Below are positions 7,025-57,901 of a DNA stretch of 57,901 bases, one piece after another. The notes beneath the pieces are model-generated. The model did not search any database and was not told the DNA's origin. It saw only the letters and a list, made by a program, of their open reading frames with translations. The stretch comes from a virus: positions 1 through 57,901 of IMG/VR virus record IMGVR_UViG_3300047550_004781; one strand, written 5' to 3'. The position numbers and the translations under genes were made by a program. Numbering within the stretch: position 1 is the stretch's first letter; each line of letters begins with the position of its first letter.

Positions 7025-8143
7025 TTATATTTTTTTAACAGAGGGACTATATGCTCCTCTGTTGCGGATATTGATAGCGCCATTCAAGTCAGCATCTATC
7101 TCAAATCCACAACTCAAACACGAGAATCTTTCGCCTTGGCGTGATTGCTTGTGTTTGACCCCGCATGCACTGCAAGTTTGCGATGTGTATGCTGCATGTA
7201 CGCGAGTTAACCGGACGCCGTTCTCTTCGCATGCATGTTCTATCCTTTGCTGGGCATAACCCACGCGCCAGAATTGATTCTTCCTACCCCAACGATTGCC
7301 TTGCTTGATTTCACTCAAATCTTCCATGACCAAATGGCTGAGTTGATCCCAAGGTATATCGTTTTTGATAGAATAGTTGATTTGGTTTTTGAGTTCAGTT
7401 CTTGCCCTTGCATGAGATTTGCTGCGTTGCTTGCGACGGGCAATTCGTTCTAATATGTCTTTAATTGGTCTACCAGTTGTATGGGTGGTTTCCATGCGTC
7501 CAGTAGAACAAGTGACCAACTTGTTCCGGCCCATGTCTACACCCATGATGGCTTGGTTGGATCGCAAGGTCACAGCCTTGACAAAATAGATACCCAAGCT
7601 ACCATCGGAATTAACACGCAAACAATTGGTTTTCATGACAAAACCACGTCGCATTAGGTCTTGCATGTGACGTGTGGGTGTGAATGGAATATAAAATGAT
7701 TTACTAGGAAATGATGTGATCTTGATCCAATTGGTGGAAATCTTGCTTGTTTTGTTGGGTTGTATGTCAATAAATCTACTATCCAACTCAATGTTCACCG
7801 AGTTGATATCAATGGACAAGCTTTTGTTGTTCCATTTGTCTAATATTTCTTGTTGGTATTTTTGTAGGTTATTGGCTTTTTGAGCTAGTTTGACTTTCTC
7901 TTGAATTGATCTGACTATTGCACTGGCTTGTTTGGCACATACCTGGCTCAACCTAGATGGCAATTGAATCTGATCAGTAACGTCTTTGTTGGCAAATTTG
8001 GTTATTTTATCTTGATATAACTGGTGATCAACTAGTTTTTGTAGTTCTTGTCTATAGATATCAAATGGCCGCATCAACATCAAGTGTTTGATGTGATTGG
8101 CTAGTTTGGGTCTGTAGGTTGATATCCTAGTAATCTTGCTCAT
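7025..8143 (-). CDS. tnpB: TnpB RNA-guided nuclease, IS607-type
   Basis: 372 residues. RuvC-type catalytic residues are all visible: D in IMGVDMGRNKL, E in LVMEDLSEI, D in IDADLNGAINI, with the zinc finger CSAC...CLSC between the last two. TnpB proteins use an RNA made from the element's right end to cut DNA at sites beside a target-adjacent motif, favouring element retention. Overlaps the recombinase gene by 17 bases. Apparently functional. Confidence 0.9.
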   Translation of the reverse strand: MSKITRISTYRPKLANHIKHLMLMRPFDIYRQELQKLVDHQLYQDKITKFANKDVTDQIQLPSRLSQVCAKQASAIVRSIQEKVKLAQKANNLQKYQQEILDKWNNKSLSIDINSVNIELDSRFIDIQPNKTSKISTNWIKITSFPSKSFYIPFTPTRHMQDLMRRGFVMKTNCLRVNSDGSLGIYFVKAVTLRSNQAIMGVDMGRNKLVTCSTGRMETTHTTGRPIKDILERIARRKQRSKSHARARTELKNQINYSIKNDIPWDQLSHLVMEDLSEIKQGNRWGRKNQFWRVGYAQQRIEHACEENGVRLTRVHAAYTSQTCSACGVKHKQSRQGERFSCLSCGFEIDADLNGAINIRNRGAYSPSVKKI

Positions 8144-8950: not shown

Positions 8951-9982
8951 ATGGACACACGAATTGGCTTTTGCTGCAAGATGCTGCCTGATCCCAGCCA
9001 ATCCTTTGTAGGCAAAAAGGATCTGCAAGAGTGGCTGGACCTGCACAACTGCAAAAGCACAACTGTGGCCTACCTGGATAGGCTCAATCACAACCAGGTA
9101 GTTGACAAAATCATCAGCCTCATAGAACACAATCAGCGTGCCTTGCGCAATCAGATCAGTGTGCTCAGCACATGGGATCTACCTCTGCGTATGATGCGAA
9201 TTGGCAGTGAGATCCTGCCTGTGCGAACGTTTGAAAAGTACAAGCATGTCTACACTGAGCCTAGTGTTGTTCGTGCGTTGGAGGGGTTTGAGGCAGTGGG
9301 CAATCTGGCTCGCAAGTATGATATCAGGCTGAGCACTCATCCTGGACAATATACCATCCTCACCAGCAACACAGCAGAAGTTGTCAACCGAGCTATTCTA
9401 GACCTGGAGTATCATGCTGAAATTTTCCGGCTGATGGGCTACACCAGCACAGACCAACGGCAGGAAATCAACATCCATGGTGGTGCTAGATGTACTGACT
9501 TTGTGGACAGGTTTGTAGCTGGACGCAATAGGCTCAGCCGTGACACAAGGGAATGGCTGAGTGTGGAGAATGATGAGTTCAGCTATGGTGTGGATGACCT
9601 GCTGCCTTTGGCTGACCTGGTCAAAATCTGCGTAGACATCAACCATTATTGGATCAAGGAGGGACACTATCTGCAACCTGACGATGCACGTATGCAAAAA
9701 GTGGTTGCCAGTTGGCGTGGTGCCAGGCCCGAGATTCATGTGGCTTGGCCCCATGAACAGGTGTTGACTGATCATGCAGATCCGCATAGCCTGCCTGACA
9801 TGGCTGTTTTGGAAAGTGCGGGATACAAGCGTGCCAAACTACGAGCACACAGTGACGATGCCTGGATCCCAGCTATCGGCAAATATGCCTTGGAGTTTTG
9901 GCCCATGGCTGATCTTTGTGTGGAGGCCAAATACAAAAATCTGGCCAGCACAAAGTTGTATAATATGACCAAATCTACCTAA
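8951..9982 (+). CDS. uvsE: UV damage endonuclease UvsE/Uve1
   Basis: 343 residues. TIM-barrel nuclease that nicks 5' to UV photoproducts, starting an alternative excision repair. Visible motifs: RIGSEILPVR, STHPGQYTILTS, EINIHGG, LSVENDEFSYG (metal-binding Glu), CVDINHYWI and HVAWPHEQ, together the His/Glu/Asp metal cluster. Length is in the usual range. A possible weak promoter (TTGACA 8830-8835, 17 nt, TGGATA) lies upstream. Fits an aquatic phage exposed to light, but that is inference. Confidence 0.88.
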   Translation: MDTRIGFCCKMLPDPSQSFVGKKDLQEWLDLHNCKSTTVAYLDRLNHNQVVDKIISLIEHNQRALRNQISVLSTWDLPLRMMRIGSEILPVRTFEKYKHVYTEPSVVRALEGFEAVGNLARKYDIRLSTHPGQYTILTSNTAEVVNRAILDLEYHAEIFRLMGYTSTDQRQEINIHGGARCTDFVDRFVAGRNRLSRDTREWLSVENDEFSYGVDDLLPLADLVKICVDINHYWIKEGHYLQPDDARMQKVVASWRGARPEIHVAWPHEQVLTDHADPHSLPDMAVLESAGYKRAKLRAHSDDAWIPAIGKYALEFWPMADLCVEAKYKNLASTKLYNMTKST

Positions 9983-11095: not shown

Positions 11096-11545
11096 TTAGT
11101 CCTTCGCCGCGCAAGCCTGTTGTGTCTTTAGACCAACAGATAAGCGCGGTGCCTTGTCCTGATTATTGATGTAGTTATTGATTACTTCCATGTTTACTTC
11201 TCCCACAGAGCAGATGAACGAGCTGCGATTCCAAAATATGTGCTTTTTCCAAAAATGCCTACGCAGGTCCAGTTCATGTGTGTGCCACAATTCATAACTG
11301 GTGTGCTGTTTGATAATTTTGGCTATATGACTGGCACTTATATCAGGTCTGGCTGAGATGAGCAGATGTAGGTGATCCTTGTCATGTTGCATGTTATCAA
11401 CAGAAAACTTGTGTGTTGCAGTTAAATTTTGAATCACACCTGTTATGAAATCGCCATATGTGTTCATGAGTCTTTTTCTATATTTCACAGTCAACACAAT
11501 ATGATATTTGATCATATAAACTGAATTGGTTGTTTTTTGATACAT
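11096..11545 (-). CDS. tnpA: IS200/IS605 Y1 transposase TnpA
   Basis: 149 residues from ATG 11545. HUH single-strand transposase: HLH in DKDHLHLLIS, catalytic Tyr in INNYINNQ. Acts as a dimer on hairpins at both ends, moving the element as single-stranded DNA, often through replication forks. The last ~18 residues are encoded by the left-end hairpin, and the TAA stop falls in the TTTAG that also precedes the minimal copy, so the stop appears supplied by the target. It is the only Y1 transposase in the window and could mobilise the tnpB-only elements and solo ends. Confidence 0.9.
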   Translation of the reverse strand: MYQKTTNSVYMIKYHIVLTVKYRKRLMNTYGDFITGVIQNLTATHKFSVDNMQHDKDHLHLLISARPDISASHIAKIIKQHTSYELWHTHELDLRRHFWKKHIFWNRSSFICSVGEVNMEVINNYINNQDKAPRLSVGLKTQQACAAKD

Positions 11546-12832
11546 TATAGTGCCTTTTTGACGCAAGCTACTAAATATATTTATGAAGATGATTGCATAC
11601 AAGTATCGCATTTATCCAACTGATGCACAAGAACAAACGCTTGTGGGTTGGTTGGGACAATTGCGATTTGTGTGGAACAAATTGTTGGCAGAAAACCAGT
11701 CACAATATGCTGTGGAGAAGAAGTTCACATTTGGGTTTGAAATGAAACGCAAGCTTCCACAAATGAAGAAGGATCATGACTGGATAGATGCACCAGCACA
11801 TGCGCTACAGAACAAGGTGTTTGATCTGGATACAGCCATGAAGAACTGCTTCAAACACAAGCGGGGATTTCCCAAATTCAAATCCAAACACACAGATAAC
11901 TCAGGGATTGAAATCAGTCAAACCACCAACAAACACATCAGGTGGGATTCAAAAACGATCACCATCCCCAAAATGGGATCAGTTAAGTGGGCCTATCACA
12001 GACGGATCAAAGGCAGATTGTTGTCTATCACTATCAAGCGTGATGTGGATTCATGGTATGTGTGTTGTTTGGCCAAGCAAGAAATTGTATCTCCTACCAC
12101 CAGGTCCATGGATTTCCATAAACAAGACTGCGTGGGACTTGATTTGGGCCTCAAGGACTTTTTTGTGTCCAGCGATGGTGAAGTAGCCGAAACTCCTCGT
12201 ATATACAGAAGTAAGCAGGAGAAATTAAAACAGCGCCAACGTAGATTGGCACGCAAACAAAAGGGTAGCGCAAATCGCAACAAAGCCAGAATCAAAGTTG
12301 CCAGGTTGCACAGAGCAATTCGGAATACAAGACTGAACTGGCACCACAATTTAAGTGATTCGATAGCCAAGAATTACCAAGTGGTGATAGTGGAAGACCT
12401 CAATATTGCAGGCATGATCAAAAACAGGAAACTAGCCAAAGCCATTCAAGACCAGGGCTGGGGCCAATTCGTCACTCAACTCACATACAAGTTGCAGTGG
12501 AGAAATGGCATGCTGCACACGATCAACAGATGGGCAGCCAGCACAAAGACCTGTAGCTGCTGCGGATCCAAAAAAACCATGACTTTATCGGAGAGAACAT
12601 ATGTGTGTTCCAATTGCGATAATGTGATGGACAGAGATCTTAATGCCGCAATCAACATACTCAATTGGGGAATTCAAGAAATCAATACCGCAGGAACTGC
12701 GGAAATGTACGCCTGTGGAGATGCCTCTGTTGGGGATGATTCGTACGTATCATCTAGACATGCATCGCTTGAAGCAGGAATCATTCCTTCGTCGGAAGGA
12801 AGCTGTTGGTCTTCAGACCAACAGTAGTTCAC
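11101..12832 (+). mobile_element. complete IS605-type element (divergent tnpA and tnpB)
   Basis: About 1.73 kb. The left end follows TTTAGT and carries the imperfect hairpin CTGTTGTGTC/AGACCAACAG (11114-11148). The right end has a perfect hairpin CTGTTGGTCT-TC-AGACCAACAG followed by TAGTTCAC (12828-12832 = TTCAC). tnpA reads left and tnpB right, the classic IS605 layout. Left-end bases are shared with the minimal element at 48629-48678. It lies between the GIY-YIG gene and a virion-type gene, interrupting neither. Confidence 0.88.
11583..12827 (+). CDS. tnpB: TnpB RNA-guided nuclease, IS605-type
   Basis: 414 residues. RuvC residues are intact: D in CVGLDLGLKDF, E in VVIVEDLNIAGM, D in VMDRDLNAAINI; zinc finger CSCC...CSNC. 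N terminus MKMIAYKYRIYPTDAQ is typical. The C-terminal ~50 residues after the finger run into the right end, whose transcript would form the guide RNA. The TTTAG at the left end should be the target-adjacent motif by analogy with ISDra2. Starts 38 bp from divergent tnpA. Confidence 0.92.
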   Translation: MKMIAYKYRIYPTDAQEQTLVGWLGQLRFVWNKLLAENQSQYAVEKKFTFGFEMKRKLPQMKKDHDWIDAPAHALQNKVFDLDTAMKNCFKHKRGFPKFKSKHTDNSGIEISQTTNKHIRWDSKTITIPKMGSVKWAYHRRIKGRLLSITIKRDVDSWYVCCLAKQEIVSPTTRSMDFHKQDCVGLDLGLKDFFVSSDGEVAETPRIYRSKQEKLKQRQRRLARKQKGSANRNKARIKVARLHRAIRNTRLNWHHNLSDSIAKNYQVVIVEDLNIAGMIKNRKLAKAIQDQGWGQFVTQLTYKLQWRNGMLHTINRWAASTKTCSCCGSKKTMTLSERTYVCSNCDNVMDRDLNAAINILNWGIQEINTAGTAEMYACGDASVGDDSYVSSRHASLEAGIIPSSEGSCWSSDQQ

Positions 12833-21301: not shown

Positions 21302-21570
21302 TGGAAACATCCCTAATCCAATCTCTGTGCAAGGAATGCCGTGTTCGTCCTTGGCTTGTTTTCATGGAAATTTTGGGAACTGGGGCAAGCGTAATTGCTG
21401 CCCTAGTTCTCAGCCTGAATTTGATGCATATTTGGGCAGTGTATTGGTTATGGTTGATGGGTAGTTTGAGCCTTAGTTTGAGCAGTTGGTGGCGCAAAAA
21501 TCTATTGCTTTTGGCATTGATGGTCTACTACACTGTTCTCAATATTTTGGGATTGTGGAATTTTTCATGA
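21301..21570 (+). CDS. small three-helix membrane protein
   Basis: 89 residues with three hydrophobic segments (about 21-42, 46-62, 68-86) and an N-terminal Cys pair. The pattern (EILGTGASVIAALVLSLNL and YYTVLNILGLWNF) resembles small PnuC/YgjV-like membrane proteins of phages; transport activity is not claimed. It is translationally coupled to genes on both sides (TGATG at its start, ATGA at its end, where polB begins). Confidence 0.6.
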   Translation: METSLIQSLCKECRVRPWLVFMEILGTGASVIAALVLSLNLMHIWAVYWLWLMGSLSLSLSSWWRKNLLLLALMVYYTVLNILGLWNFS

Positions 21571-23816
21571 CATATGTGGATGCTTTTTTAAATAGGGACA
21601 AAAATACTGTGGACGTTGTGGAACGTGTGAATGGACGCAGGGTCTACAACAGTTATCCCAGCAGATATGTAACTTACTTCCCCAGTGTCAAAGGCAAATA
21701 CACCAGCATCTTTGGTGACAAACTGGACAAATATGAAACCACCAAACATGAAGATTTCCAACGTGAATTGCGTATGTTGCCCAAAGATCGTCAATTTGAA
21801 AGTGACATCAATCCCATCTTCCGTTGTTTTTATGACAATTACAAGGACTCACCAATTCCCAAATTACATGTGGCATTCTTCGATTTAGAGGTAGACTGGC
21901 ACAAAGATCGAGGATTCAGCAGCACAGAAGAGGCATTCAATCCAATCACCGCAGTTAGTGTGTTTTGTGATTGGTTGGACACCAATTTCACTCTTGTAAT
22001 CAAACCCAAGACCTACACTTGGGAACAAGCTACTGAAATATGTGACAAATTCGACAACACTGTGCTGTGTGAAGATGAAGCACAATTGATTGATGTGTTC
22101 CTCACATTGATTGAAGACGCAGACATACTCACAGGTTGGAATTCAGAGGGGTACGATATTCCCTATTTGCACAACCGTATTGTTCAGGTGCTCAGCAAAG
22201 AACACACCAAGAGGTTGTGTTTGTGGAACCGGTTTCCACGCAAAAGAGAATATGAAAGCTATGGCAAGCCCACTGTCACGTATGATTTGGTGGGCAGGGT
22301 GCATTTGGATTACTTGCAACTGTATCGCAAACATACCTATCATGAAATGCACAGTTATCGACTGGATTTTGTGGGCGAGTATGAGGTTGGAGAGAAGAAG
22401 GTGGCCTATGAAGGCAGCCTGGACAAACTTTACAATGAGGACTTTGAAAAGTTTATTGCCTATAACAGACAGGACGTCATGCTGTTGGTGAAAATTGATC
22501 GCAAGCTTCAATTTATCGAGTTGTGTAATGCGCTGGCACATGAAAATGGTGTGCTGTTGGCTACTACCATGGGCAGTGTGTTGTTGATTGACAATGCCAT
22601 CACAAATGAAGCTCACAACTTGGGTTTGATTGTGCCTATTCGAACTAGGGATCATCAACCTGACACAACTGATGATCATGAGGATGAGGACAGCGAGCCC
22701 AGAGGCATTGTGGGTGCATATGTGGCCGATCCAGTTCAGGGCATGCATGAATGGATTGGTGGTGTGGACATCAACAGTCTGTATCCCAGCACCATCCGTA
22801 GTTTGAACATGAGCAAAGAAACTGTTGTGGGTCAGATCAGGTCCACCAGCACTGATCGTTTGATCAATCATCGTATTCACAAAGAAAAGCGCAGTTTTGC
22901 TGACAGCTGGAACGAAATGTTTGGCACCTTGGAATACAACCAGGTGCTCAACAGAGAACTTGTGATGCTTACTGTGGATTTTGAAGATGGCACGACTGCT
23001 GAATTGAGTGGTGATGAACTCTATCAGTGGGTGTTTGAGAATCCCAAACGACAATTGACCATCAGTGCCAATGGTACTATTTTTGATGTGAGCAAGGATG
23101 GTGTTGTGCCAGGATTGCTGGCACGTTGGTACAAAGAGCGTAAAGAGATTCAAGCTGAAGCCAAAAAATACGCCAAGATGGCTGATGAGGAGACTGATGA
23201 CGCCAAGAAAGCAGAATACAAAGAATTGGCAGAATTCTACGACAGAAGGCAGTTGATCAAGAAAATTCTGCTAAATTCGCTGTATGGCGCAGTAGGCAAT
23301 TCTGCAAGTCTGTATTTTGATAATCGCATAGCTCAGAGCACTACACTCACAGGTAGATGTATTGTGAAACACATGGGCAGCAAAATAAATGAGGTCATCT
23401 CTGGGAATTATCACCACAAAGGGGATGCTGTTGTGTACGGCGATACAGATTCGGTTGCAGCAGATAGTATCGTTCGAACTAGCATAGGCGATAAGGCAAT
23501 CGAAGACCTGTTTATGGCCGGAGATGTATTTTGGCAGGAGGGTGATAAAGAGTATTCTCAAAATAAACACATAAAGGTGGTTAGCTATGACCATCAAAAG
23601 GAAACGGTCACACAATCGCCCTATCTTTATGTTTATAGACATAAGGTCAAAAAAAAGAAATATCGAATCACAACAGCTAATGGAAAAAGTGTTGTAGTAA
23701 CTGAAGATCACAGTATAATGGTTCTTCAAGATGGTATGCTTGTAGAGAAAAAACCAGCAGAGCTCACAAAGCATGATGTAATTGTTACCTCCCGCCGCGG
23801 AAAGCCAGGGTGCTAG
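21567..23816 (+). CDS. polB: DNA polymerase B, N-terminal part, fused to a split-intein N domain
   Basis: ATG 21567 overlaps the previous TGA. Residues 1-628 are the polymerase N part: exonuclease motifs AFFDLEVDW, DILTGWNSEGYDIPYL and YNRQDVMLL; polymerase motifs GGVDINSLYPSTIRS (A), KKILLNSLYGAVGN (B) and VVYGDTD (C). At D-S of YGDTDS the intein begins with Ser (codon 23451). About 113 intein residues follow, with block B as TEDHS. Eight residues encoded by the inserted TnpB element then lead to a stop. The rest of the polymerase is at 25581-26597. Joined exteins give 922 residues, near T4 gp43 (898). Confidence 0.93.
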   Translation: MTYVDAFLNRDKNTVDVVERVNGRRVYNSYPSRYVTYFPSVKGKYTSIFGDKLDKYETTKHEDFQRELRMLPKDRQFESDINPIFRCFYDNYKDSPIPKLHVAFFDLEVDWHKDRGFSSTEEAFNPITAVSVFCDWLDTNFTLVIKPKTYTWEQATEICDKFDNTVLCEDEAQLIDVFLTLIEDADILTGWNSEGYDIPYLHNRIVQVLSKEHTKRLCLWNRFPRKREYESYGKPTVTYDLVGRVHLDYLQLYRKHTYHEMHSYRLDFVGEYEVGEKKVAYEGSLDKLYNEDFEKFIAYNRQDVMLLVKIDRKLQFIELCNALAHENGVLLATTMGSVLLIDNAITNEAHNLGLIVPIRTRDHQPDTTDDHEDEDSEPRGIVGAYVADPVQGMHEWIGGVDINSLYPSTIRSLNMSKETVVGQIRSTSTDRLINHRIHKEKRSFADSWNEMFGTLEYNQVLNRELVMLTVDFEDGTTAELSGDELYQWVFENPKRQLTISANGTIFDVSKDGVVPGLLARWYKERKEIQAEAKKYAKMADEETDDAKKAEYKELAEFYDRRQLIKKILLNSLYGAVGNSASLYFDNRIAQSTTLTGRCIVKHMGSKINEVISGNYHHKGDAVVYGDTDSVAADSIVRTSIGDKAIEDLFMAGDVFWQEGDKEYSQNKHIKVVSYDHQKETVTQSPYLYVYRHKVKKKKYRITTANGKSVVVTEDHSIMVLQDGMLVEKKPAELTKHDVIVTSRRGKPGC
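23451..23789 (+). other. split-intein N-terminal splicing domain (pol-c site)
   Basis: Begins Ser1 (SVAADSIVRTSIGDKAIEDL, block A). Block B is VVVTEDHSIMVL with the conserved T-x-x-H; ends near ELTKHDVIVT. The site, between D and S of YGDTDS, is the pol-c position also used in mimivirus and other B-family polymerases. No LAGLIDADG motif. The frame is broken by the mobile element right after the splicing domain. Confidence 0.85.
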
Positions 23817-25074
23817 AGCCCCTGGATGGATAGCGGCTTTTTGAATAGATTATATAAATAGATTTATGAAACAGCGATATCGCTATAGGATTTATCCAAC
23901 ACCTGCTCAAGAACAACAGATGCGTTCTGTGGGCGGAGCAGTGCGATATCTATACAATCATTTCCTCAAGATCAACATTGATGAATATCAGTTGACCAAA
24001 AAGTTTGTTTGGCAGTTTGACATGTGCAAACAACTGACTGAATTGAAGAAACACAACAAATGGTTATCAGATACCTACAGTCAAGTACTACAACAGAGCA
24101 TAAGCGATTTGGATACAGCACTGAAAAATATCAAGAAAACAGGTGCTGGATTCCCACGGTTCAAAAGCAAATACACAACTCCTATAAGTTTTAGATATCA
24201 ACAAAACGTGAGAGTTGACAACAACAAGCTATATCTACCCAAGATTGGTGATATCAAGATTGTACTCCATCGAGATCTTCCCAAGTTCAAAGGCGTGACT
24301 GTCACCCAAACACCACGTGGTTGGTATGCCTCATTTGTGGTTGATGTCTTGGAACTGCCATGGGTTCAAAACATAACCAATCCAGTGGGGGTGGATGTCA
24401 ACAGCAAATTCACAGCACTATCAACGGGTGAGCTAGTTGCAAATCCCAAGCCATTGGTGAAAAAACAAGCACGTATCCGACTGCTACAACGCAAACTATC
24501 CAGAAAACAAAAAGCAAGTAGAAATAGAACCAAAGCAAAAACAAGACTGGCCCGAACCCATGATCTGGTTCGCTGCCAAAGACTGGACCATATACATCAG
24601 ACAAGTGCGAGAATAGCCAAATCGCATGACCTGGTGTCAGTTGAAACACTGAAAATTGATGAGATGAGACGCAAGAGCAAGCCCACAGCCAAGTGCATCG
24701 CAGATGCTGGTTGGGCTATGCTGGCTGGTGCGTTGGCCTACAAGTGCCAAAGGCAAGGCCATCATCTTGTCAAGATCAATCAGTGGCTACCCAGTAGCAA
24801 GACCTGTAGTGCATGTGGCACCCGCAAAAGTCACATGGATCTCAAGCAAAGAGAATATCCTTGTGATCATTGCGGAATAACTCAGCACAGGGACACTAAT
24901 GCAGCCATCAATATTCGCAACTGGGGACATCAACAATGGACACTAGATCATGCAGGGCAGGAACTGCCCCAAGCGCCTGTGGATGTGATCACAGATATTC
25001 TCGCCAATTGGGGTGAGATATCAGCCAGCACGATGAAGCAGGAAGCCACAGCCCTTTAGGGCGTGGTAGTTCAC
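23789..25074 (+). mobile_element. tnpB-only IS605-type element nested in the intein region
   Basis: About 1285 bp inserted just after TTAC (23785-23788). Left end: CCGCCGCGGAAAGCC, then hairpin CCAGGG...CCCCTGG. Right end: hairpin AGCCACAGCCC-TTTA-GGGCGTGG, then TAGTTCAC. A near-identical copy also follows TTAC at 56812-56815. No transposase is encoded; shared end features suggest mobilisation by the TnpA at 11096. Removing 1285 bp rejoins the intein N domain in frame with the nuclease (..VT|DESGYAK). Confidence 0.88.
23866..25059 (+). CDS. tnpB: TnpB RNA-guided nuclease
   Basis: 397 residues, intact: D in VGVDVNSKFTAL, E in VSVETLKIDEM, D in QHRDTNAAINI, zinc finger CSAC...CDHC. N terminus MKQRYRYRIYPTPAQEQQ. 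Nearly identical to the copy at 56893, so spread was recent. Its guide RNA should come from the right end and read into the flank at 25075, within the nuclease coding sequence, with TTAC as the probable adjacent motif; the target would then be the uninterrupted intein allele. Confidence 0.92.
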   Translation: MKQRYRYRIYPTPAQEQQMRSVGGAVRYLYNHFLKINIDEYQLTKKFVWQFDMCKQLTELKKHNKWLSDTYSQVLQQSISDLDTALKNIKKTGAGFPRFKSKYTTPISFRYQQNVRVDNNKLYLPKIGDIKIVLHRDLPKFKGVTVTQTPRGWYASFVVDVLELPWVQNITNPVGVDVNSKFTALSTGELVANPKPLVKKQARIRLLQRKLSRKQKASRNRTKAKTRLARTHDLVRCQRLDHIHQTSARIAKSHDLVSVETLKIDEMRRKSKPTAKCIADAGWAMLAGALAYKCQRQGHHLVKINQWLPSSKTCSACGTRKSHMDLKQREYPCDHCGITQHRDTNAAINIRNWGHQQWTLDHAGQELPQAPVDVITDILANWGEISASTMKQEATAL

Positions 25075-25599
25075 GACGAATCCGGTTATGCCAAATGGCT
25101 TGAATACAATAAGGAAAAATCCAAATCATCTAAAGTTGATTGGGTTATGGAGAAATTTGGCGTGGATCATGATCAAGCTTTAGAAATCATTGCAGCAAGA
25201 TATAAATCAAGATATACTTCACAGGCGGAACAGACATTTATCGACATGTTCGAGCATGCACTTGGTGAGTCGATACAATACAGTGTCAAGAATAAACAAT
25301 TTTGCATCTGGAACCCTTACCTCAATACCCCGTGTTTTTATGATATTGCTGACTCTAAACGGAAAAAAATTATTGAGTTCAATGGGGATTACTGGCATTG
25401 CAACCCAAGTAAGTATGCTGCCGATCATGTTTTGCGTCACACCGGAGCAACAGCCAAGCAAATTTGGGAAAGAGATTATCTCAAAAAGAAAGCGGCTTTG
25501 AATAAAGGCTTCAAAATTAAAATTGTTTGGGAAGGCGACTTTCAAAACAATCATGAAAAAATCCTAAAGGAGTGTGTAGAATGGTGGAACGAGAGCTAA
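25063..25599 (+). CDS. Vsr-like (EDxHD-type) homing endonuclease between intein halves
   Basis: Readable from GTG 25063 at the edge of the TnpB element; sequence outside the element starts at DESGYAKWLEYNK, and ATG 25147 is the first internal start. Catalytic core KKIIEFNGDYWHCNP matches the Vsr/EDxHD pattern (E-D-WH) of the nuclease family described with fractured genes and split inteins. A TSQAEQTF helix precedes it and KIKIVWEGDF follows. Stop TAA 25597-25599 overlaps the next gene in another frame. The insertion may have removed its original start or its fusion to the N domain. Confidence 0.82.
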   Translation: MVVHDESGYAKWLEYNKEKSKSSKVDWVMEKFGVDHDQALEIIAARYKSRYTSQAEQTFIDMFEHALGESIQYSVKNKQFCIWNPYLNTPCFYDIADSKRKKIIEFNGDYWHCNPSKYAADHVLRHTGATAKQIWERDYLKKKAALNKGFKIKIVWEGDFQNNHEKILKECVEWWNES

Positions 25600-25712
25600 C
25601 AACCATAGATCAAATAGAATGCCTTGGCGAATTTGAGGATGAATATGTATATGATATTGGAATTGATGCGCATCATCCATACTTCTTTGCCAATGACATT
25701 TTAGTCCATAAT
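25581..25712 (+). other. split-intein C-terminal splicing domain
   Basis: 44 residues from a genuine ATG with ribosome-binding site, ending HN before Ser+1. The size matches natural C-inteins of about 35-45 residues. Confidence 0.85.
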
Positions 25713-26597
25713 TCAGTCTACTTCTCAGCATATCCTGTGATGAGCAAACTGGAAGAATTCAAGGATTTTGAATGGAGCAAGGAAGCCATTGTGCAACTGT
25801 ATGACCAGATTGCAGACATTACCAACGATAGCTTTCCTGAATTTATGAAACAGGCATTCAATGTGCCCGAACATAAATGTGTTATCAAAGCTGGTAGAGA
25901 ATTGGTGGCCAGCAAGGGTTTGTTTATTACCAAAAAACGGTATGCAGTTTTGATATACGACAAAGAAGGCAAACGCAAGGACTTGGATGGCAAGCTTGGT
26001 GAAATCAAGGCCATGGGTCTGGATCTCAAGCGCAGTGATACTCCCAAACCTGTGCAGGATTTTTTGAGTGATGTGTTGGTGTCAGTGTTGACTGATGCAA
26101 CCAAACAACAAGTGTTTGACAAGATCAAGCAGTTCCGTGCTGAATTTGCCAGCTGGCCCAGTTGGTCCAAAGGCACTCCCAAACGTGTGAACAATCTTAC
26201 CATGTATGGAGACATCAAACGCAATCAGGACGGCCTCAAGGATGTGTTCAGTAACAGGGGCGATGCCAAAAAGAAAACTATTCCAGGTCACGTGTTGGCC
26301 AGCCTAAACTACAACAATCTACGTGAAATCTACAACGACAACACCAGCATGCCCATCCAGGATGGATTCAAGGTAATTGTATGCAAATTGCGCAGCAATC
26401 CATTGGGCTTGACCAGTATTGCCTATCCGGTGGACCAACTTATCCTACCACAATGGTTCAAGGATTTGCCTTTTGACGATGAACTCATGAGTGAGACTTT
26501 GATTACCAAAAAGGTGGAGAATTTGTTGGGTGTGCTCAATTGGGATCTAAATGAAGCTCGAAACAATGAAAGTTTCGATCAACTGTTCACTTTTTGA
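25581..26597 (+). CDS. polB: split-intein C domain fused to DNA polymerase B C-terminal part
   Basis: Has its own AAGGAG 8 nt before ATG 25581, in a different frame from the overlapping nuclease gene, so it is separately translated. Residues 1-44 are the intein C domain (block F EYVYDIGIDAHHPYFFAND, block G ILVHN). Splicing would occur at N|S, with Ser codon 25713. Residues 45-338 are the polymerase thumb and C-terminal region, starting SVYFSAYP and including KKRYAVLIYDKEGKRK. Together with 21567-23450 this rebuilds a full T4-type polymerase by trans-splicing. Confidence 0.9.
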   Translation: MVERELTTIDQIECLGEFEDEYVYDIGIDAHHPYFFANDILVHNSVYFSAYPVMSKLEEFKDFEWSKEAIVQLYDQIADITNDSFPEFMKQAFNVPEHKCVIKAGRELVASKGLFITKKRYAVLIYDKEGKRKDLDGKLGEIKAMGLDLKRSDTPKPVQDFLSDVLVSVLTDATKQQVFDKIKQFRAEFASWPSWSKGTPKRVNNLTMYGDIKRNQDGLKDVFSNRGDAKKKTIPGHVLASLNYNNLREIYNDNTSMPIQDGFKVIVCKLRSNPLGLTSIAYPVDQLILPQWFKDLPFDDELMSETLITKKVENLLGVLNWDLNEARNNESFDQLFTF

Positions 26598-26991: not shown

Positions 26992-27798
26992 ATGGATGAT
27001 CTAGGTGATAGGCTCAAAGCCTATGAAACCCAAGAAACTTCCCGGAAGCTACTTCCGGGGGTTCCTGTTTATGCCAGGATAGATGGTAGATCATTCTCAA
27101 AGTTTACAAGAGATATGATCCGTCCATTTGACTCAAGACTGCATGACGCTATGGTTAGTGCTACACAACACTTGGTTGATCAATCTGGTGCAACTATCGG
27201 TTACACTGCCTCCGATGAAATCAGCCTGGGTTGGGCCTTGACTGATCACATGAGTCAAATGCTGTTTGATGGCAAGCTGCACAAACTTCACAGCGTGTTG
27301 GCCAGCATGGCAACTGTGGCATTTGTTAGAGCTGTTGCAGAAAACTTTGAGGATGCGGACAAATGGTTGGACAAAATGCCGCATTTTGATGCACGGGTGA
27401 TGAGTGTGCCCAACTTGGATGAGCTGGCCAACTGCTTTCTATGGAGAAATTGGGACTGCACGAAAAATTCCATCAGCATGGCAGCCAGCCACTTTTATAG
27501 TCACAAAGAACTGGATGGCAAAAATTCAGCACAAAAGCAGGAAATGATGTGGCAAAAGGGCCAGAATTTCAACGATTACCCCTCAGAATTCAAGCGCGGA
27601 ACATTTGTTCGACGCAGGAAGATCCAGCAAGAATTCAATCCAGCTGCGTGGGCCTTGATCCCGCTGGCACATCGTCCTCCATTGGATGAATTACTGCTGA
27701 GAACCCAAACCGTCAGCTATGATCTCCCTCCTTTGAGCAAGATCAACAACCGCGTAGAAGTTTTGTTTGACGACGCTGAGCCTAACAGTCTAAGCTAG
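26992..27798 (+). CDS. thg1: tRNA-His guanylyltransferase family protein (Thg1-like)
   Basis: 268 residues. Thg1 family enzymes add nucleotides 3'-to-5', to tRNA-His or to repair 5' ends of tRNAs. Palm motifs: VYARIDGRSFSKFT (first metal Asp) and IGYTASDEISLGW (Asp-Glu pair), plus CFLWRNWDCTKNS. Length is close to the family's. No tRNA gene is in the window, so the substrate may be host tRNAs damaged by defence nucleases; that is inference. A hairpin precedes the ATG. Confidence 0.9.
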   Translation: MDDLGDRLKAYETQETSRKLLPGVPVYARIDGRSFSKFTRDMIRPFDSRLHDAMVSATQHLVDQSGATIGYTASDEISLGWALTDHMSQMLFDGKLHKLHSVLASMATVAFVRAVAENFEDADKWLDKMPHFDARVMSVPNLDELANCFLWRNWDCTKNSISMAASHFYSHKELDGKNSAQKQEMMWQKGQNFNDYPSEFKRGTFVRRRKIQQEFNPAAWALIPLAHRPPLDELLLRTQTVSYDLPPLSKINNRVEVLFDDAEPNSLS

Positions 27799-33625: not shown

Positions 33626-34306
33626 ATGAGTTACAATCGAACAAAATGTGATGCCCAATTGGGGAAACAAGTGCATGAATATTTGGTAAAAATGGGTGTG
33701 GAAACGCCCAGCATTGCCAGAGAACTCAGTCGCACTGACAAAATTGACATCATCCAGCAAAAATTCCAGGACATTATGATAGCTCTTGGACTGGACATTG
33801 GGGATGACAGCCTGGCAGAAACACCCTTGCGCTATGCAAAAATGCTTGTTAACGAAACAATGTGGGGATTGGATTGGGACGCTTTTCCCAAATGCACTAC
33901 TGTGGAAAACAAAATGGGCTACGATGAAATGGTAGTTGAGAAAAATATTACCATAAAGAGCAATTGTGAGCATCATTTTGTACCTATTGTGGGGCTGGCC
34001 CATGTGGCTTACATTCCCGACAACAAAGTTCTGGGATTGAGTAAAATTCCCCGCATTTGTGAATATTTTGCCCGCAGACCACAAATACAAGAAAGACTCA
34101 CTGAACAAATTTTTCACACGCTGGCTTTTGTTCTTGAAACGCACAACATTGCTGTGGTAGTAGATGCCAGACATTTGTGTGTGAGTCACAGAGGTGTGGA
34201 AGACACCAATGCTCACACAATTACCAGCAAGTTGGGTGGATGTTTCAAATCTGATCCTGCTGCTAGAGCAGAATTCATGCAGGCTATCACAAGATTATCT
34301 CCATGA
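33626..34306 (+). CDS. folE: GTP cyclohydrolase I
   Basis: 226 residues, standard length. Converts GTP to dihydroneopterin triphosphate. Zinc ligands in SNCEHHFVPIVG and LCVSHRGVED; core GLSKIPRICEYFARRPQIQE. In phages with dpdA it is the first step of 7-deazaguanine synthesis. AGGAG before the ATG. Ends ATGA with the next gene. Confidence 0.95.
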   Translation: MSYNRTKCDAQLGKQVHEYLVKMGVETPSIARELSRTDKIDIIQQKFQDIMIALGLDIGDDSLAETPLRYAKMLVNETMWGLDWDAFPKCTTVENKMGYDEMVVEKNITIKSNCEHHFVPIVGLAHVAYIPDNKVLGLSKIPRICEYFARRPQIQERLTEQIFHTLAFVLETHNIAVVVDARHLCVSHRGVEDTNAHTITSKLGGCFKSDPAARAEFMQAITRLSP

Positions 34307-48446: not shown

Positions 48447-48624
48447 CTTTTGCCTAATGTTGATACTGATTCCATTTGGGTTGTTATTTGTGTTTTGGTT
48501 TTTGGTGGAAGTTTGGGAAGACAAGATGGGAAAAATTTATAAAAACAAAAACAAAATCATATTAAGTGCCAGAAAAAGTGCCAAGATGCACAAGGCACTG
48601 ATTGCTGACAACTGGCCCAGCTAA
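48391..48624 (+). CDS. small membrane protein with basic C terminus
   Basis: 77 residues. One hydrophobic segment (LMLILIPFGLLFVFWFLVEV) and a Lys-rich cytoplasmic tail (KNKNKIILSARKSAKMHK). Fits an inner-membrane topology with C-in. A minimal IS605-type sequence begins 5 bp after its stop. Confidence 0.5.
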   Translation: MATAIFVDWTRGLDFTLGDFCLMLILIPFGLLFVFWFLVEVWEDKMGKIYKNKNKIILSARKSAKMHKALIADNWPS

Positions 48625-48628
48625 TCCA

Positions 48629-48678
48629 GTGAACTACTGTTGGTCTAAAGACACAACAGGCTTGCGCGGCGAAGGACT
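48629..48678 (-). mobile_element. about 50-bp minimal IS605 derivative (left end joined to right-end tip)
   Basis: In reverse: TTTAGT, CCTTCGCCGCGCAAGCC, hairpin CTGTTGTGTC/AGACCAACAG, then TAGTTCAC. It matches the left end of the IS605 at 11101 over about 45 bases, with only the last 8 bases of a right end. It lies between a membrane gene and guaB, 26 bp before the guaB start codon. Confidence 0.75.
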
Positions 48679-48703
48679 AAATTATACAAAGAGGATATGG
48701 TCA

Positions 48704-50596
48704 ATGGCACAAGTTATACGTGAAGCACTGACATTTGATGATGTGTTGCTGGAGCCTGGTTATAGTAATGTACTACCAGCAGATGTTGATATACAAAGCA
48801 AGTTTAGCCGTAATATCAAGCTGAATATCCCCATCGTAAGTGCTGCCATGGACACTGTTACTGAGCATGAGATGGCCATTGCCATGGCAGAAGCTGGTGG
48901 CATTGGAGTGATTCACAAAAATCTAACTCATGATCAACAAGCTGCCGAAGTCAGCAAAGTCAAGCGTTATGTGAGTGGTATGGTGGTCAATCCTGTGACC
49001 ATCCAACCACAAGAGAAACTGGTGACAGTGCGGGAACTCATGCAACAGCATGATGTGAGTGGTATTCCTGTTGTATCAGGAGAGACAAACCGTTTGATTG
49101 GAATAGTAACCTATCGTGATGTTAGATTTGCCAAAGATCCCAATACTCTTGTAGAACAACTGATGACCAGTGAAAATTTGGTTACAGTCACAGGTAATGT
49201 AAGCCAGGATGAGGCTAGGGATCTCCTGCACAAGCATAGAATTGAAAAGTTAATTGTGGTAGATGAGAACTACAGTTGTGTGGGATTGATCACATTTAGA
49301 GATATTGATCGCGCTCAAGCCACGCCCTTGGCACTCAAAGACCCACATGGTAGACTGATGGTGGCTGCTGCTGTGGGGGTGAGTTTGCAAGAATTTATTC
49401 GAGCTCAGTGTTTGGTAAATGCTGGAGCGGATGCACTGGTGGTAGATACTGCCCATGGTCACACACAAGGAGTGGGAGATCAAGTCAAGCGCCTCAAAGC
49501 TGCTTATCCCAATTTGGATGTGGTGGCAGGCAATGTTGCCACACCCCAAGCAGCACAATACCTTTATGATAGTCAAGCAGATGGTATAAAGGTGGGAATA
49601 GGACCTGGTTGTTTTGTGCCCGGCATGCCTGTTGTAACCCACCAAGGAAGCAAACCAATAGAAAAAGTGCAAATTGGTGATAGAGTTTTGACTCACAAGG
49701 GTCAATGGAAACCTGTTACAAATCTGTTTACTTTTGATGATAAGAAACAGATTATTCATATAAATGATATCATTTGTACGCCCAATCATGAATTTTTTGT
49801 ATTGCATAAGAAATACCAGACTCTCGTAACAGACGACAAAATCCATGAGTATGCTGAATGGATAGAGGCCAAAAATCTAACAAAAGACTATTTGCTTATT
49901 CAGCATAACAGCTTTCCAAAATATAAATTGGTTGAGATTGACACCCTAACAGAAGAATCTTATGATGGTGTAACACATGATTTGGAAGTTGCCGATGATC
50001 ACTCCTACAATATAAATGGGGTGATAGTTCACAACAGTATTTGCACCACTCGTGTGGTGGCAGGAATTGGAATTCCACAGTTTAGTGCAATATTGGAAAC
50101 TGCAGAAATGTGTGAGAACATCAAACTGCCTCTGATTGCTGACGGCGGTATTCGCAGCAGCGGAGACATAGTCAAGGCTCTAGCAGCAGGTGCTCACAGT
50201 GTGATGTTGGGCAGCATGTTGGCTGGCACAGATGAAAGCCCAGGTGAGACGTTCATCTATCAGGGCAGAACCTACAAGAGCTATAGGGGTATGGGCAGTC
50301 TCAGTGCAATGAATCAAGGCAGTGCAGATAGATACAGTCAAGCAGGTATCAAACTCAACAAGATGGTTCCTGAAGGAGTGGAAGCTAGGGTGCCAGCCAG
50401 AGGTCCCCTGGGATTGGTGTTGCATCAGCTTGTGGGTGGATTGCGAAGTGGTATGGGATATGTGGGGGCTAAAGATTTGTTGAATTTACAAGCCCGGGCC
50501 CTGTTCCGAAGGATCACCAATGCGGGATTAAAAGAGAGCATTGTTCATGACGTGGCTATCACCAAGGAAGCACCCAACTACAATCACAACAGCTAG
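48704..50596 (+). CDS. guaB: IMP dehydrogenase with an in-frame mini-intein
   Basis: ATG 48704 with GAGG 8 nt upstream. Mature enzyme 488 residues (302 + 186), the usual GuaB length: TFDDVLLEPGYSNVLP, two CBS domains (~95-205), VVDTAHGH, DVVAGNVAT, then KVGIGPG. The 142-residue intein sits between that Gly and the Ser of SICTTR, the loop with the catalytic Cys, so the enzyme is inactive until splicing. After it come ADGGIRSSGDIVKALAAGA and YRGMGSLSAM. Makes XMP for GTP, the FolE substrate. Confidence 0.95.
   Translation: MAQVIREALTFDDVLLEPGYSNVLPADVDIQSKFSRNIKLNIPIVSAAMDTVTEHEMAIAMAEAGGIGVIHKNLTHDQQAAEVSKVKRYVSGMVVNPVTIQPQEKLVTVRELMQQHDVSGIPVVSGETNRLIGIVTYRDVRFAKDPNTLVEQLMTSENLVTVTGNVSQDEARDLLHKHRIEKLIVVDENYSCVGLITFRDIDRAQATPLALKDPHGRLMVAAAVGVSLQEFIRAQCLVNAGADALVVDTAHGHTQGVGDQVKRLKAAYPNLDVVAGNVATPQAAQYLYDSQADGIKVGIGPGCFVPGMPVVTHQGSKPIEKVQIGDRVLTHKGQWKPVTNLFTFDDKKQIIHINDIICTPNHEFFVLHKKYQTLVTDDKIHEYAEWIEAKNLTKDYLLIQHNSFPKYKLVEIDTLTEESYDGVTHDLEVADDHSYNINGVIVHNSICTTRVVAGIGIPQFSAILETAEMCENIKLPLIADGGIRSSGDIVKALAAGAHSVMLGSMLAGTDESPGETFIYQGRTYKSYRGMGSLSAMNQGSADRYSQAGIKLNKMVPEGVEARVPARGPLGLVLHQLVGGLRSGMGYVGAKDLLNLQARALFRRITNAGLKESIVHDVAITKEAPNYNHNS
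49610..50035 (+). other. contiguous mini-intein (IMPDH-1 type site)
   Basis: 142 residues, Cys1 (CFVPGMPVVTHQG) to His-Asn (VIVHN) with Ser+1. Block B is IICTPNHEFFVL; block F THDLEVADDHSYN. No endonuclease domain. Site and start sequence resemble the split intein IMPDH-1 known from ocean metagenomes, but here both halves are one open frame with no stop or start between them. Confidence 0.92.
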
Positions 50597-56506: not shown

Positions 56507-56815
56507 ATGGATCTAGCAGCAACAAACCTATTATCGCCACTCGTGCTTTGTTTTGCCTTAGGGGCAATGGCAGTTGTCCTCAGGGGTAGCCTTAGGTTGC
56601 CGGAACAGGCATTTGATGTCCTCGGCATATATCTCATGCTGGCCATCGGTCTCCACGGTGGCAGGGCCATGGCTTCCGCAGACATATCTGCATTTTTTCC
56701 CGTGGCGATGATGGCGGTGGCCGTTGGAGTGGTGATACCGATCATATGCTCAACCGTCATCGGGATATCAACCAATGTATCCGTTGCCGATAGGCTGGCG
56801 ATAGGAGCACATTAC
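56507..56815 (+). pseudogene. sbtA: N-terminal part of an SbtA-type bicarbonate transporter, cut by an insertion
   Basis: 103 residues before the insertion. Repeated membrane helices: LLSPLVLCFALGAMAVVLRG, QAFDVLGIYLMLAIGLHGG, FFPVAMMAVAVGVVIPIICS, then DRLAIGAHY where SbtA proteins continue with a Gly/Ser-rich loop. This is the first ~third of the sodium-dependent bicarbonate transporter family (PF05982). A TnpB element entered right after TTAC (56812-56815); the continuation, if any, is outside the window. Confidence 0.75.
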
Positions 56816-57901
56816 CTCCCGCCGCGGAAAGCCAGGCGCCTTTAGGCCCTGGATGGATAGCGGCTTTTTGAACAGATTATATAAATAGATTTATGAAACA
56901 GCGATATCGCTATAGGATTTATCCAACCCCTGCTCAAGAACAACAGATGCGTTCTGTGGGCGGAGCAGTGCGATATCTATACAACCATTTCCTACGTGTA
57001 AACATTGATGAATATCAATTGACCAAAAAATTTGTTTGGCAGTTTGACATGTGCAAACAACTGACTGAATTGAAGAAACACACCCCGTGGTTATCAGATA
57101 CCTACAGTCAAGTGCTACAACAAAGCATAAGTGACTTGGATACAGCACTGAAAAATATGAAAAAGACAGGTGCTGGCTTTCCCAAGTTCAAAAGCAAATA
57201 CACAACTCCTGTTAGCTTTAGATATCAACAAAACGTGAGAGTTGACAACAACAAGCTATATCTACCCAAGATTGGTGATATCAAGATTGTATTGCATAGG
57301 GATTTGCCCACATTCAAGGGTGTGACTGTGATTCAAACACCACGTGGTTGGTATGCCTCATTTGTGGTTGATGTGACTGAATTGCCATTGGTTCAAAAAA
57401 TAACCAACCCGGTAGGGGTGGATGTCAACAGCAAATTCACGGCATTGAGCACTGGTGAATTGATTGCCAATCCCAAGCCATTGGTGAAGAAACAAGCACG
57501 TATCAAACAGTTACAACGCAAGCTATGCAGAAAACAAAAAGCAAGTAGGAATAGAACAAAAGCAAAACAAAAACTGGCACGAACCCATGATCTGGTTCGC
57601 TGCCAAAGACTCGACCATATACATCAGACAAGTGCGAGAATAGCCAAATCACATGACCTGGTGTGTGTTGAAACACTGAAAATTGAAGAGATGAGACGCA
57701 AGAGCAAGCCCATAGCCAAGTGTATAGCTGATGCTGGTTGGGCTATGTTGATTGGTGCATTGGCCTACAAGTGCCAAAGGCAAGGCCATCATCTTGTCAA
57801 GATCAATCAGTGGCTACCCAGTAGCAAGACCTGCTCCTCATGTGGTGCACGCAAAAGTCACATGGATCTCAAGCAAAGAGAATATCATTGTGATCATTGC
57901 G
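56816..57901 (+). mobile_element. second copy of the tnpB-only IS605-type element (right end outside window)
   Basis: Follows TTAC like the copy at 23789. Left-end sequence matches base for base over CTCCCGCCGCGGAAAGCCAG, and the hairpin and tnpB leader (TTATATAAATAGATTTATG) are nearly identical. Interrupts the sbtA-like gene. Confidence 0.88.
56893..57901 (+). CDS. tnpB: TnpB RNA-guided nuclease, partial at window edge
   Basis: 336 codons are visible. Nearly identical to the protein at 23866-25059: MKQRYRYRIYPTPAQEQQ, GVDVNSKFTALSTGELIANP, VCVETLKIEEMRRKS and the start of the zinc finger CSSCGARKSH. The third RuvC Asp lies past the edge. Confidence 0.9.
   Translation, partial: MKQRYRYRIYPTPAQEQQMRSVGGAVRYLYNHFLRVNIDEYQLTKKFVWQFDMCKQLTELKKHTPWLSDTYSQVLQQSISDLDTALKNMKKTGAGFPKFKSKYTTPVSFRYQQNVRVDNNKLYLPKIGDIKIVLHRDLPTFKGVTVIQTPRGWYASFVVDVTELPLVQKITNPVGVDVNSKFTALSTGELIANPKPLVKKQARIKQLQRKLCRKQKASRNRTKAKQKLARTHDLVRCQRLDHIHQTSARIAKSHDLVCVETLKIEEMRRKSKPIAKCIADAGWAMLIGALAYKCQRQGHHLVKINQWLPSSKTCSSCGARKSHMDLKQREYHCDHC

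What the first reader, a model, noticed from the sequence alone, without database searches (positions are those of the whole stretch)
21567..26597. Fractured DNA polymerase gene with split intein, free-standing Vsr-like nuclease and a nested TnpB element
Seen: polymerase motif C is cut at YGDTD|S. An intein N domain follows and stops. A Vsr-like nuclease gene comes next. A separate ATG with AAGGAG, in another frame, then starts an intein C domain ending HN|S and the rest of the polymerase. This matches the fractured-gene arrangement described from ocean metagenomes, where a homing endonuclease lies between genes encoding split-intein halves. Here it affects the replicative polymerase, and a third selfish layer, a tnpB transposon, has entered between the N domain and the nuclease. 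Active polymerase would need trans-splicing.
Basis: partly seen in the sequence, partly recalled or inferred. Interest (0 to 1): 0.9.

Follow-up and report, generated by a model that had tools for sequence, protein, structure and literature searches.

The report
Split-intein phage polymerase with nested TnpB
A phage DNA polymerase gene is cut in two by a split intein, a layout already known from other phages, and in this one contig an insertion sequence carrying the RNA-guided nuclease TnpB stands in place of the first half of the homing nuclease that normally sits between the two pieces.

Summary
A T4-type family B DNA polymerase is broken at motif C (YGDTD|S). An intein N domain ends the first half; an intein C domain starts the second half, which has its own AAGGAG and ATG. 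This arrangement is not new: Aeromonas phage Aes123 is annotated with the same order and a VSR endonuclease, and its PolB split intein trans-splices in vitro. In IMG/VR I found 56 distinct intein-N DNA sequences with a split intein and an intact Vsr-like nuclease gene at this site.

What differs here is the insert. A 1,286-bp TnpB-only IS200/IS605 element (23789-25074) did not simply enter between intein and nuclease: it stands in place of about 575 bp, including codons 1-170 of a 344-codon nuclease. The remaining ORF keeps the whole nuclease domain. No other fetched intein-N locus has TnpB in this slot. Best explanation: a phage-resident IS disabled a dispensable homing nuclease while the essential split intein stayed intact. 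In relatives the same nuclease decays by other routes, and a few have contiguous mini-inteins. Misassembly across repeated IS copies is not excluded, and neither splicing nor cleavage was tested.

The parts
21567..23450 (+). Polymerase N-extein (exonuclease, motifs A and B, YGDTD of motif C)
23451..23816 (+). Intein N domain (Ser1, block B VTEDHS); native homology to 23788, last codons and stop 23814-23816 supplied by the left end of the IS
   Evidence: Intein_splicing 3.7e-9; 9hth Aes123 PolB1 intein match; homology to L002 ends at 23788
23785..23788 (+). TTAC target-like sequence at the left edge of the IS
   Evidence: TTAC at this place in five copies; conserved in L002 without IS
23789..25074 (+). 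TnpB-only IS200/IS605-type element
   Evidence: ends fixed by comparison with other copies
23866..25059 (+). tnpB (397 aa; GVDVN, VSVETL, HRDTNAA motifs and zinc ribbon)
25037..25074 (+). Conserved right-end hairpin, presumed 3' end of the omega RNA; the guide would begin at 25075 (inference)
25063..25599 (+). Vsr-like homing endonuclease remnant (homology from 25075; equals residues 171-344 of the L002 homologue)
   Evidence: phrog_22677 positions 182-346 of 353
25567..25572 (+). AAGGAG ribosome-binding site of the C half, inside the nuclease ORF
25581..25712 (+). Intein C domain (44 aa, ends ILVHN)
25713..26597 (+). Polymerase C-extein, starting SVYFSAYP

Best explanation
This is a fractured phage polymerase gene. 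The two halves are translated separately and the split intein should join them after YGDTD, so that the catalytic aspartates and the following SVYFS strand end up in one chain (inferred for this phage; shown in vitro for related PolB split inteins). The nuclease gene between the halves was a Vsr-like homing endonuclease that cut intein-free polB and so spread the cassette (inferred from the family and from the lateral history seen here). In this phage a phage-resident TnpB-only IS stands in place of the IntN tail, the spacer and codons 1-170 of the nuclease. The likely route is insertion after TTAC at the end of IntN plus a 575-bp loss with TAC at both ends, or recombination between two IS copies. 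The damage is tolerated because only the intein halves are essential, and because the retained 3' end of the nuclease gene still carries the ribosome site and start of the C half. If TnpB is active, its guide would point at the nuclease sequence and favour keeping the IS; it would not spread the intein into empty polB.
For: Shown: the same order in L002 and in all 78 other loci that could be assessed, each with an IntN stop, a separate nuclease ORF and a separate C start, none fused. Splice-site residues intact. Intein-free alleles are common: 597 polymerase relatives, L102-L104 aligning over the whole joined query at 63-64%. Lateral movement: the L056 polymerase is as close to the window as that of L002 (72% in PolC) but its IntN is 43.6% and its nuclease 37.7% identical, against 79% and 80% in L002; synonymous distance to L002 is 0.6-1.4 in the intein and 2.8-4.0 in the exteins (extein values are saturated). 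IS: TTAC left flank in five copies and a common right end; relative with TnpA in L082. Nuclease domain 217-344 of the homologue is retained. Nuclease decay in relatives: remnants of 114, 67-68 and 50 aa, splits with none, contiguous mini-inteins. Trans-splicing of relatives: PMC11923092, PMC12707363.
Against: The remnant is an intact 174-codon ORF with all invariant nuclease residues and is not evolving faster than the intact L002 gene, so it may still work or the loss may be very recent. The replacement is seen in one contig only, and an assembler could produce it by collapsing two IS copies. Neither splicing nor cleavage was tested.
Confidence: 0.7

Rival explanations
1. The missing 575 bp is an assembly artefact. 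The phage population holds IS insertions both at the end of IntN and in the nuclease gene, in one genome or in two variants, and the assembler joined them through the repeated IS.
For: The IS family is repeated in this contig (90% identical second copy at 56812, end fragments elsewhere) and the contig stops inside that copy. Both edges are precise IS ends, and L002 has TAC just before the resumption point.
Against: The second copy in the contig is 10% different, so collapse with it is unlikely; a near-identical third copy is not seen. Graded 5' losses of the same nuclease exist in relatives without any IS.
Confidence: 0.17
2. The truncated nuclease is still a working enzyme, made by reinitiation at GTG 25063 after the TnpB stop, with altered or relaxed specificity.
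For: GTG lies 3 nt after the tnpB stop and in the same frame. The ORF is open, the nuclease domain is complete and its residues are kept. No faster evolution than the intact homologue.
Against: The helical N-terminal region, presumably the DNA-binding part, is gone and the break falls inside a helix. Part of the sequence is constrained by the overlapping C-half start. Relatives with remnants suggest decay.
Confidence: 0.1
3. TnpB has taken over as the selfish nuclease of the cassette: guided to the nuclease gene of IS-free relatives, it converts them to the TnpB form during co-infection.
For: TnpB is intact by sequence and its right end is conserved. TnpB drives IS elements through plasmid populations (PMC11870625).
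Against: Its guide targets the nuclease gene, not empty polB. The L002 sequence lacks TTAC at that point and mismatches the guide. No exact target was found in IMG/VR. The IS sits in many other places of the same genome. Single case.
Confidence: 0.07
4. The locus is a dead polymerase: the insertion abolished function and the phage uses another polymerase.
For: A 1.3-kb IS lies between the halves; no splicing was tested.
Against: Both halves are open, with low dN/dS and intact motifs; the C half keeps its ribosome site; the split preceded the IS in all relatives.
Confidence: 0.03

Closest known systems
Aeromonas phage Aes123 fractured polB (GenBank JN377899) and its PolB1 split intein
   Same: Polymerase subunit with N-intein, putative VSR endonuclease, polymerase subunit with C-intein, with overlapping nuclease and C-half genes. 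The window IntN matches the crystal structure of this intein, 9hth. Trans-splicing shown in vitro (PMC11923092).
   Different: Its nuclease is complete and there is no TnpB; its polB has a further break (gp43A / gp43B1).
Fractured genes of Dassa et al. 2009 (doi 10.1093/nar/gkp095; text not held, known from citations and my own knowledge)
   Same: Essential enzyme gene interrupted by a split intein, with a free-standing Vsr-type homing endonuclease gene between the halves.
   Different: Here the nuclease gene is reduced to its C-terminal half by an IS.
Pseudomonas phage MIJ3 split polB intein (PMC6892783; LR588166)
   Same: Split PolB intein with a nuclease gene between the halves.
   Different: A longer, different nuclease of about 560 aa; no TnpB.
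IS200/IS605 elements with TnpB only (IS1341-type)
   Same: tnpB alone, structured right end, TTAC at the left edge, no target duplication, a relative with TnpA.
   Different: This copy lies inside a nuclease gene that lies inside a split-intein cassette.
IStrons (group I intron plus TnpB-type IS, PMC4227781)
   Same: A TnpB element whose presence in a gene is harmless because a self-splicing element removes the interruption.
   Different: Protein trans-splicing instead of RNA splicing; the intein is not part of the IS; no Rfam family in the window.

Membership tests
Fractured gene with split intein (Dassa type) | Conserved enzyme gene interrupted at a conserved site | tested here: met
   YGDTD|S of a family B polymerase; uninterrupted relatives exist
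Fractured gene with split intein (Dassa type) | N and C intein domains on separately translated genes | tested here: met
   IntN stop 23814, C-half ATG 25581 with AAGGAG; Intein_splicing on both halves (the C hit is below the family cut-off)
Fractured gene with split intein (Dassa type) | Free-standing homing endonuclease gene between the halves | tested here: inconclusive
   A nuclease ORF is present but lacks codons 1-170 and its normal start; intact in 56 distinct relatives
Fractured gene with split intein (Dassa type) | Trans-splicing of the two halves | not testable with these tools
   Shown only for relatives (PMC11923092, PMC12707363)
Vsr-like homing endonuclease (I-Bth0305I type) | Vsr-type nuclease fold | tested here: met
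   L002 homologue, model residues 217-344: 1cw0 Z 12.1, rmsd 2.5 over 114; 3r3p Z 10.8, rmsd 3.3 over 95; this part is retained in the window
Vsr-like homing endonuclease (I-Bth0305I type) | Conserved nuclease-domain residues | tested here: met
   D260, E271, D275, H278, K307, W322 (L002 numbering) invariant in the alignment that includes the window
Vsr-like homing endonuclease (I-Bth0305I type) | N-terminal helical region, presumably DNA-binding | tested here: not met
   Residues 1-170 absent in the window, present in relatives
Vsr-like homing endonuclease (I-Bth0305I type) | Cleavage of the intein-free site | not testable with these tools
   Needs an enzyme assay
IS200/IS605 TnpB-only element | TnpB with RuvC motifs and zinc ribbon | tested here: met
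IS200/IS605 TnpB-only element | Conserved ends and a short 5' target without duplication | tested here: met
   TTAC left flank in five copies, common GTTCAC right end, differing right flanks
IS200/IS605 TnpB-only element | Structured right end (omega RNA) | tested here: met
   12-pair consensus in 11 copies; 3 pairs kept by changes on both sides, all in one divergent copy, L085
IS200/IS605 TnpB-only element | RNA-guided cleavage | not testable with these tools
   Needs an enzyme assay
IStron | Group I intron associated with the IS | tested here: not met
   No Rfam family at gathering threshold in the window

The most novel reading that the evidence does not exclude
An RNA-guided nuclease element (TnpB) has replaced the DNA-targeting half of a homing endonuclease in a split-intein cassette and now protects or drives that cassette in the phage population: a protein-splicing counterpart of the IStron.
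Probability: 0.07. Interest if true: 0.8.

Novelty: new variant of a known kind. Interest (0 to 1): 0.42.

Why it matters
The fractured polymerase is known, but this site offers a natural series: empty allele, split with intact nuclease, truncated nuclease, nuclease lost, contiguous mini-intein, and one case where an RNA-guided nuclease element has entered. It makes two questions testable: whether a split intein can outlive its homing nuclease and then rejoin into one gene, and whether TnpB can take over from a homing endonuclease. The many cassettes with Ser nucleophiles are also a pool of candidate split inteins for protein engineering.

Tried and rejected
Direct repeats around the nuclease gene as a general route for its precise loss: 2 of 47 loci shared a word of 8 or more, against 3.4 expected with swapped partners; rejected. 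Contigs with the IS-free right flank: one exact 18-mer in IMG/VR, in an unrelated contig without intein or nuclease; none for the left flank. TnpB in the intein slot of other loci: none among the fetched intein-N loci. Close TnpB relatives in 84,980 bacterial and archaeal genomes: none confirmed, so the IS gives no clue to the host. Group I intron or other known RNA in the window: no Rfam hit. One continuous frame broken by a sequencing error: rejected, since IntN, nuclease and C half are separate in all 78 other assessable loci. Foldseek E-values for the nuclease were weak (0.25-0.6) and were backed by the structural aligner's Z. Substitution rates could not decide whether the nuclease remnant still works. 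Dassa et al. 2009 is not held and could not be read.

Full report
1. What is there. The polymerase N half starts at ATG 21567 and reaches YGDTD at 23450. It has the family B exonuclease and polymerase domains and matches T4-type polymerase structures such as 1clq. Motif A (DINSLYPS) and motif B (NSLYGAVGN) are present. An intein N domain begins with Ser at 23451 and carries block B (VTEDHS). The C half starts at ATG 25581, 8 nt after AAGGAG, has the intein C domain ending ILVHN at 25712 and continues with SVYFSAYP.

2. The insert. Comparison with other copies in this contig and in IMG/VR contigs fixes the element at 23789-25074: five copies have TTAC at the left edge, and the right end GTTCAC is shared while the right flanks differ. 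TnpB is intact by sequence. The element has no TnpA; the related element in L082 has one directly before tnpB, and the window has a TnpA beside another tnpB at 11.1-12.8 kb. The right end folds into a hairpin in eleven copies, with three pairs changed on both sides in one divergent copy.

3. The nuclease is cut in half. In the nearest relative, L002 (76% PolN, 79% IntN, 80% nuclease, 91% IntC, 73% PolC), TTAC at the end of IntN is followed by a few codons, a stop, a spacer with AGGAGG, and a nuclease gene of 344 codons. DNA homology to the window stops at TTAC and resumes after codon 170 of that gene. About 575 bp is therefore missing, and the IS stands in its place. Residues 171-344 remain. 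The predicted structure of the L002 protein (mean pLDDT 91.8) has an all-helical N part and a nuclease domain at about 217-344 that matches Vsr (Z 12.1) and the homing endonuclease I-Bth0305I (Z 10.8). The break falls inside a helix (163-189). The invariant nuclease residues are kept in the window.

4. Conservation. The nuclease scan found 263 relatives in IMG/VR, of which 80 were kept. In all 78 loci other than the window and its own fragment that could be assessed, IntN stops shortly after its end, the nuclease is a separate ORF and the C half has its own start; none is fused. In most, the C half starts within or close to the last codons of the nuclease. Counted by distinct IntN DNA over all fetched loci, 56 are splits with an intact Vsr-like nuclease. 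Ten entries were scored as remnants: two of them are the window and its own fragment, and two more (L189, L244) are long partial matches. Five are splits with another long ORF, six are splits with no nuclease, and four are contiguous mini-inteins. In L209 the contiguous intein reads KGKKMDIERTT across the junction, where M begins the C half in split relatives. This suggests that it was once split; it is an inference.

5. Mobility. Polymerases without any intein are common. L056 has a polymerase as close to the window as L002 has, but a very different intein and nuclease. Over 57 loci, PolC identity and nuclease identity to the window are not significantly correlated (Spearman 0.19, p 0.17; the loci are not independent). 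Synonymous distance to L002 is lower in the intein than in the exteins (extein values are saturated). This fits a cassette that moves between phages, as a homing element does. Cleavage was not tested.

6. Function now. Both intein halves show low dN/dS and keep their splice residues, so trans-splicing is expected; it has been shown in vitro for the Aes123 and LCGC14 PolB split inteins (PMC11923092, PMC12707363). The nuclease probably no longer homes. Its open frame has a GTG at 25063, 3 nt after the tnpB stop and in the same frame, so translation by reinitiation is possible (inference). The retained part holds the ribosome site of the C half, which would explain why the 3' end of the nuclease also survives in the remnants of L106, L195, L211 and L224.

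7. What TnpB adds. By established TnpB biology (PMC8612924; own knowledge) the guide would begin at 25075, in the nuclease gene. It would cut copies with TTAC followed by that sequence and so favour keeping the IS. It would not cut empty polB, so it cannot replace the homing function in the simple sense. A gene drive by TnpB elements has been shown in plasmids (PMC11870625). No suitable target was found in relatives.

8. Comparison with the known. Aeromonas phage Aes123 has the same order with a complete VSR endonuclease. MIJ3 has a split polB intein with another nuclease. What is new here is the TnpB element in place of the first half of the nuclease, in one contig.

9. Limits. This contig is the only one with TnpB in the slot. 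The IS is repeated and the contig ends inside another copy, so a collapse of two insertions is possible. Dassa et al. 2009 could not be read here; what is said of it rests on citations and my own knowledge.

Noticed in passing
48602-50596: IMP dehydrogenase with a contiguous 142-residue mini-intein (49610-50035, CFVPGMP...VIVHN|SICTTR) and no nuclease: a second intein in the same phage.
   Followed up: partly
7025-8143 (-), 11583-12827 (+), 23866-25059 (+), 56893-57901 (+, cut by the contig end): Four TnpB genes in 58 kb, one beside a TnpA (11096-11611, -), plus IS end fragments near 36.7-37.0, 38.0, 45.1 and 46.6 kb. Close relatives of the 23.9-kb TnpB were found in viral contigs but not in cellular genomes.
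   Followed up: partly
L209 5326-5496; L106, L195, L211, L224, L217, L221: Graded loss of the homing nuclease at the same polB site, down to split inteins without nuclease and a contiguous mini-intein with a vestigial C-half start.
   Followed up: partly
L056 483-5529; L003 1714-5419; L029 2146-5536: Polymerase genes broken at further places (near residue 112 and between about 524 and 572), with HNH-like ORFs in the gaps of L056 and a nuclease-like ORF in the gap of L029.
   Followed up: no
L183 2748-4496; L188 2798-4522; L100 4256-5953: A different nuclease-like protein of about 565-582 aa with cysteine-rich repeats and an IEYNG/IEYDG-IYWHS motif between the intein halves at the same site, as in phage MIJ3.
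   Followed up: no
L019 4614-6491: Two extra small ORFs (99 and 213 aa) on either side of the nuclease inside the fractured polymerase.
   Followed up: no
26992-27798: Thg1-like tRNA-His guanylyltransferase downstream of the polymerase; GTP cyclohydrolase I (33626-34306) and UvdE (8951-9982) are also present.
   Followed up: no
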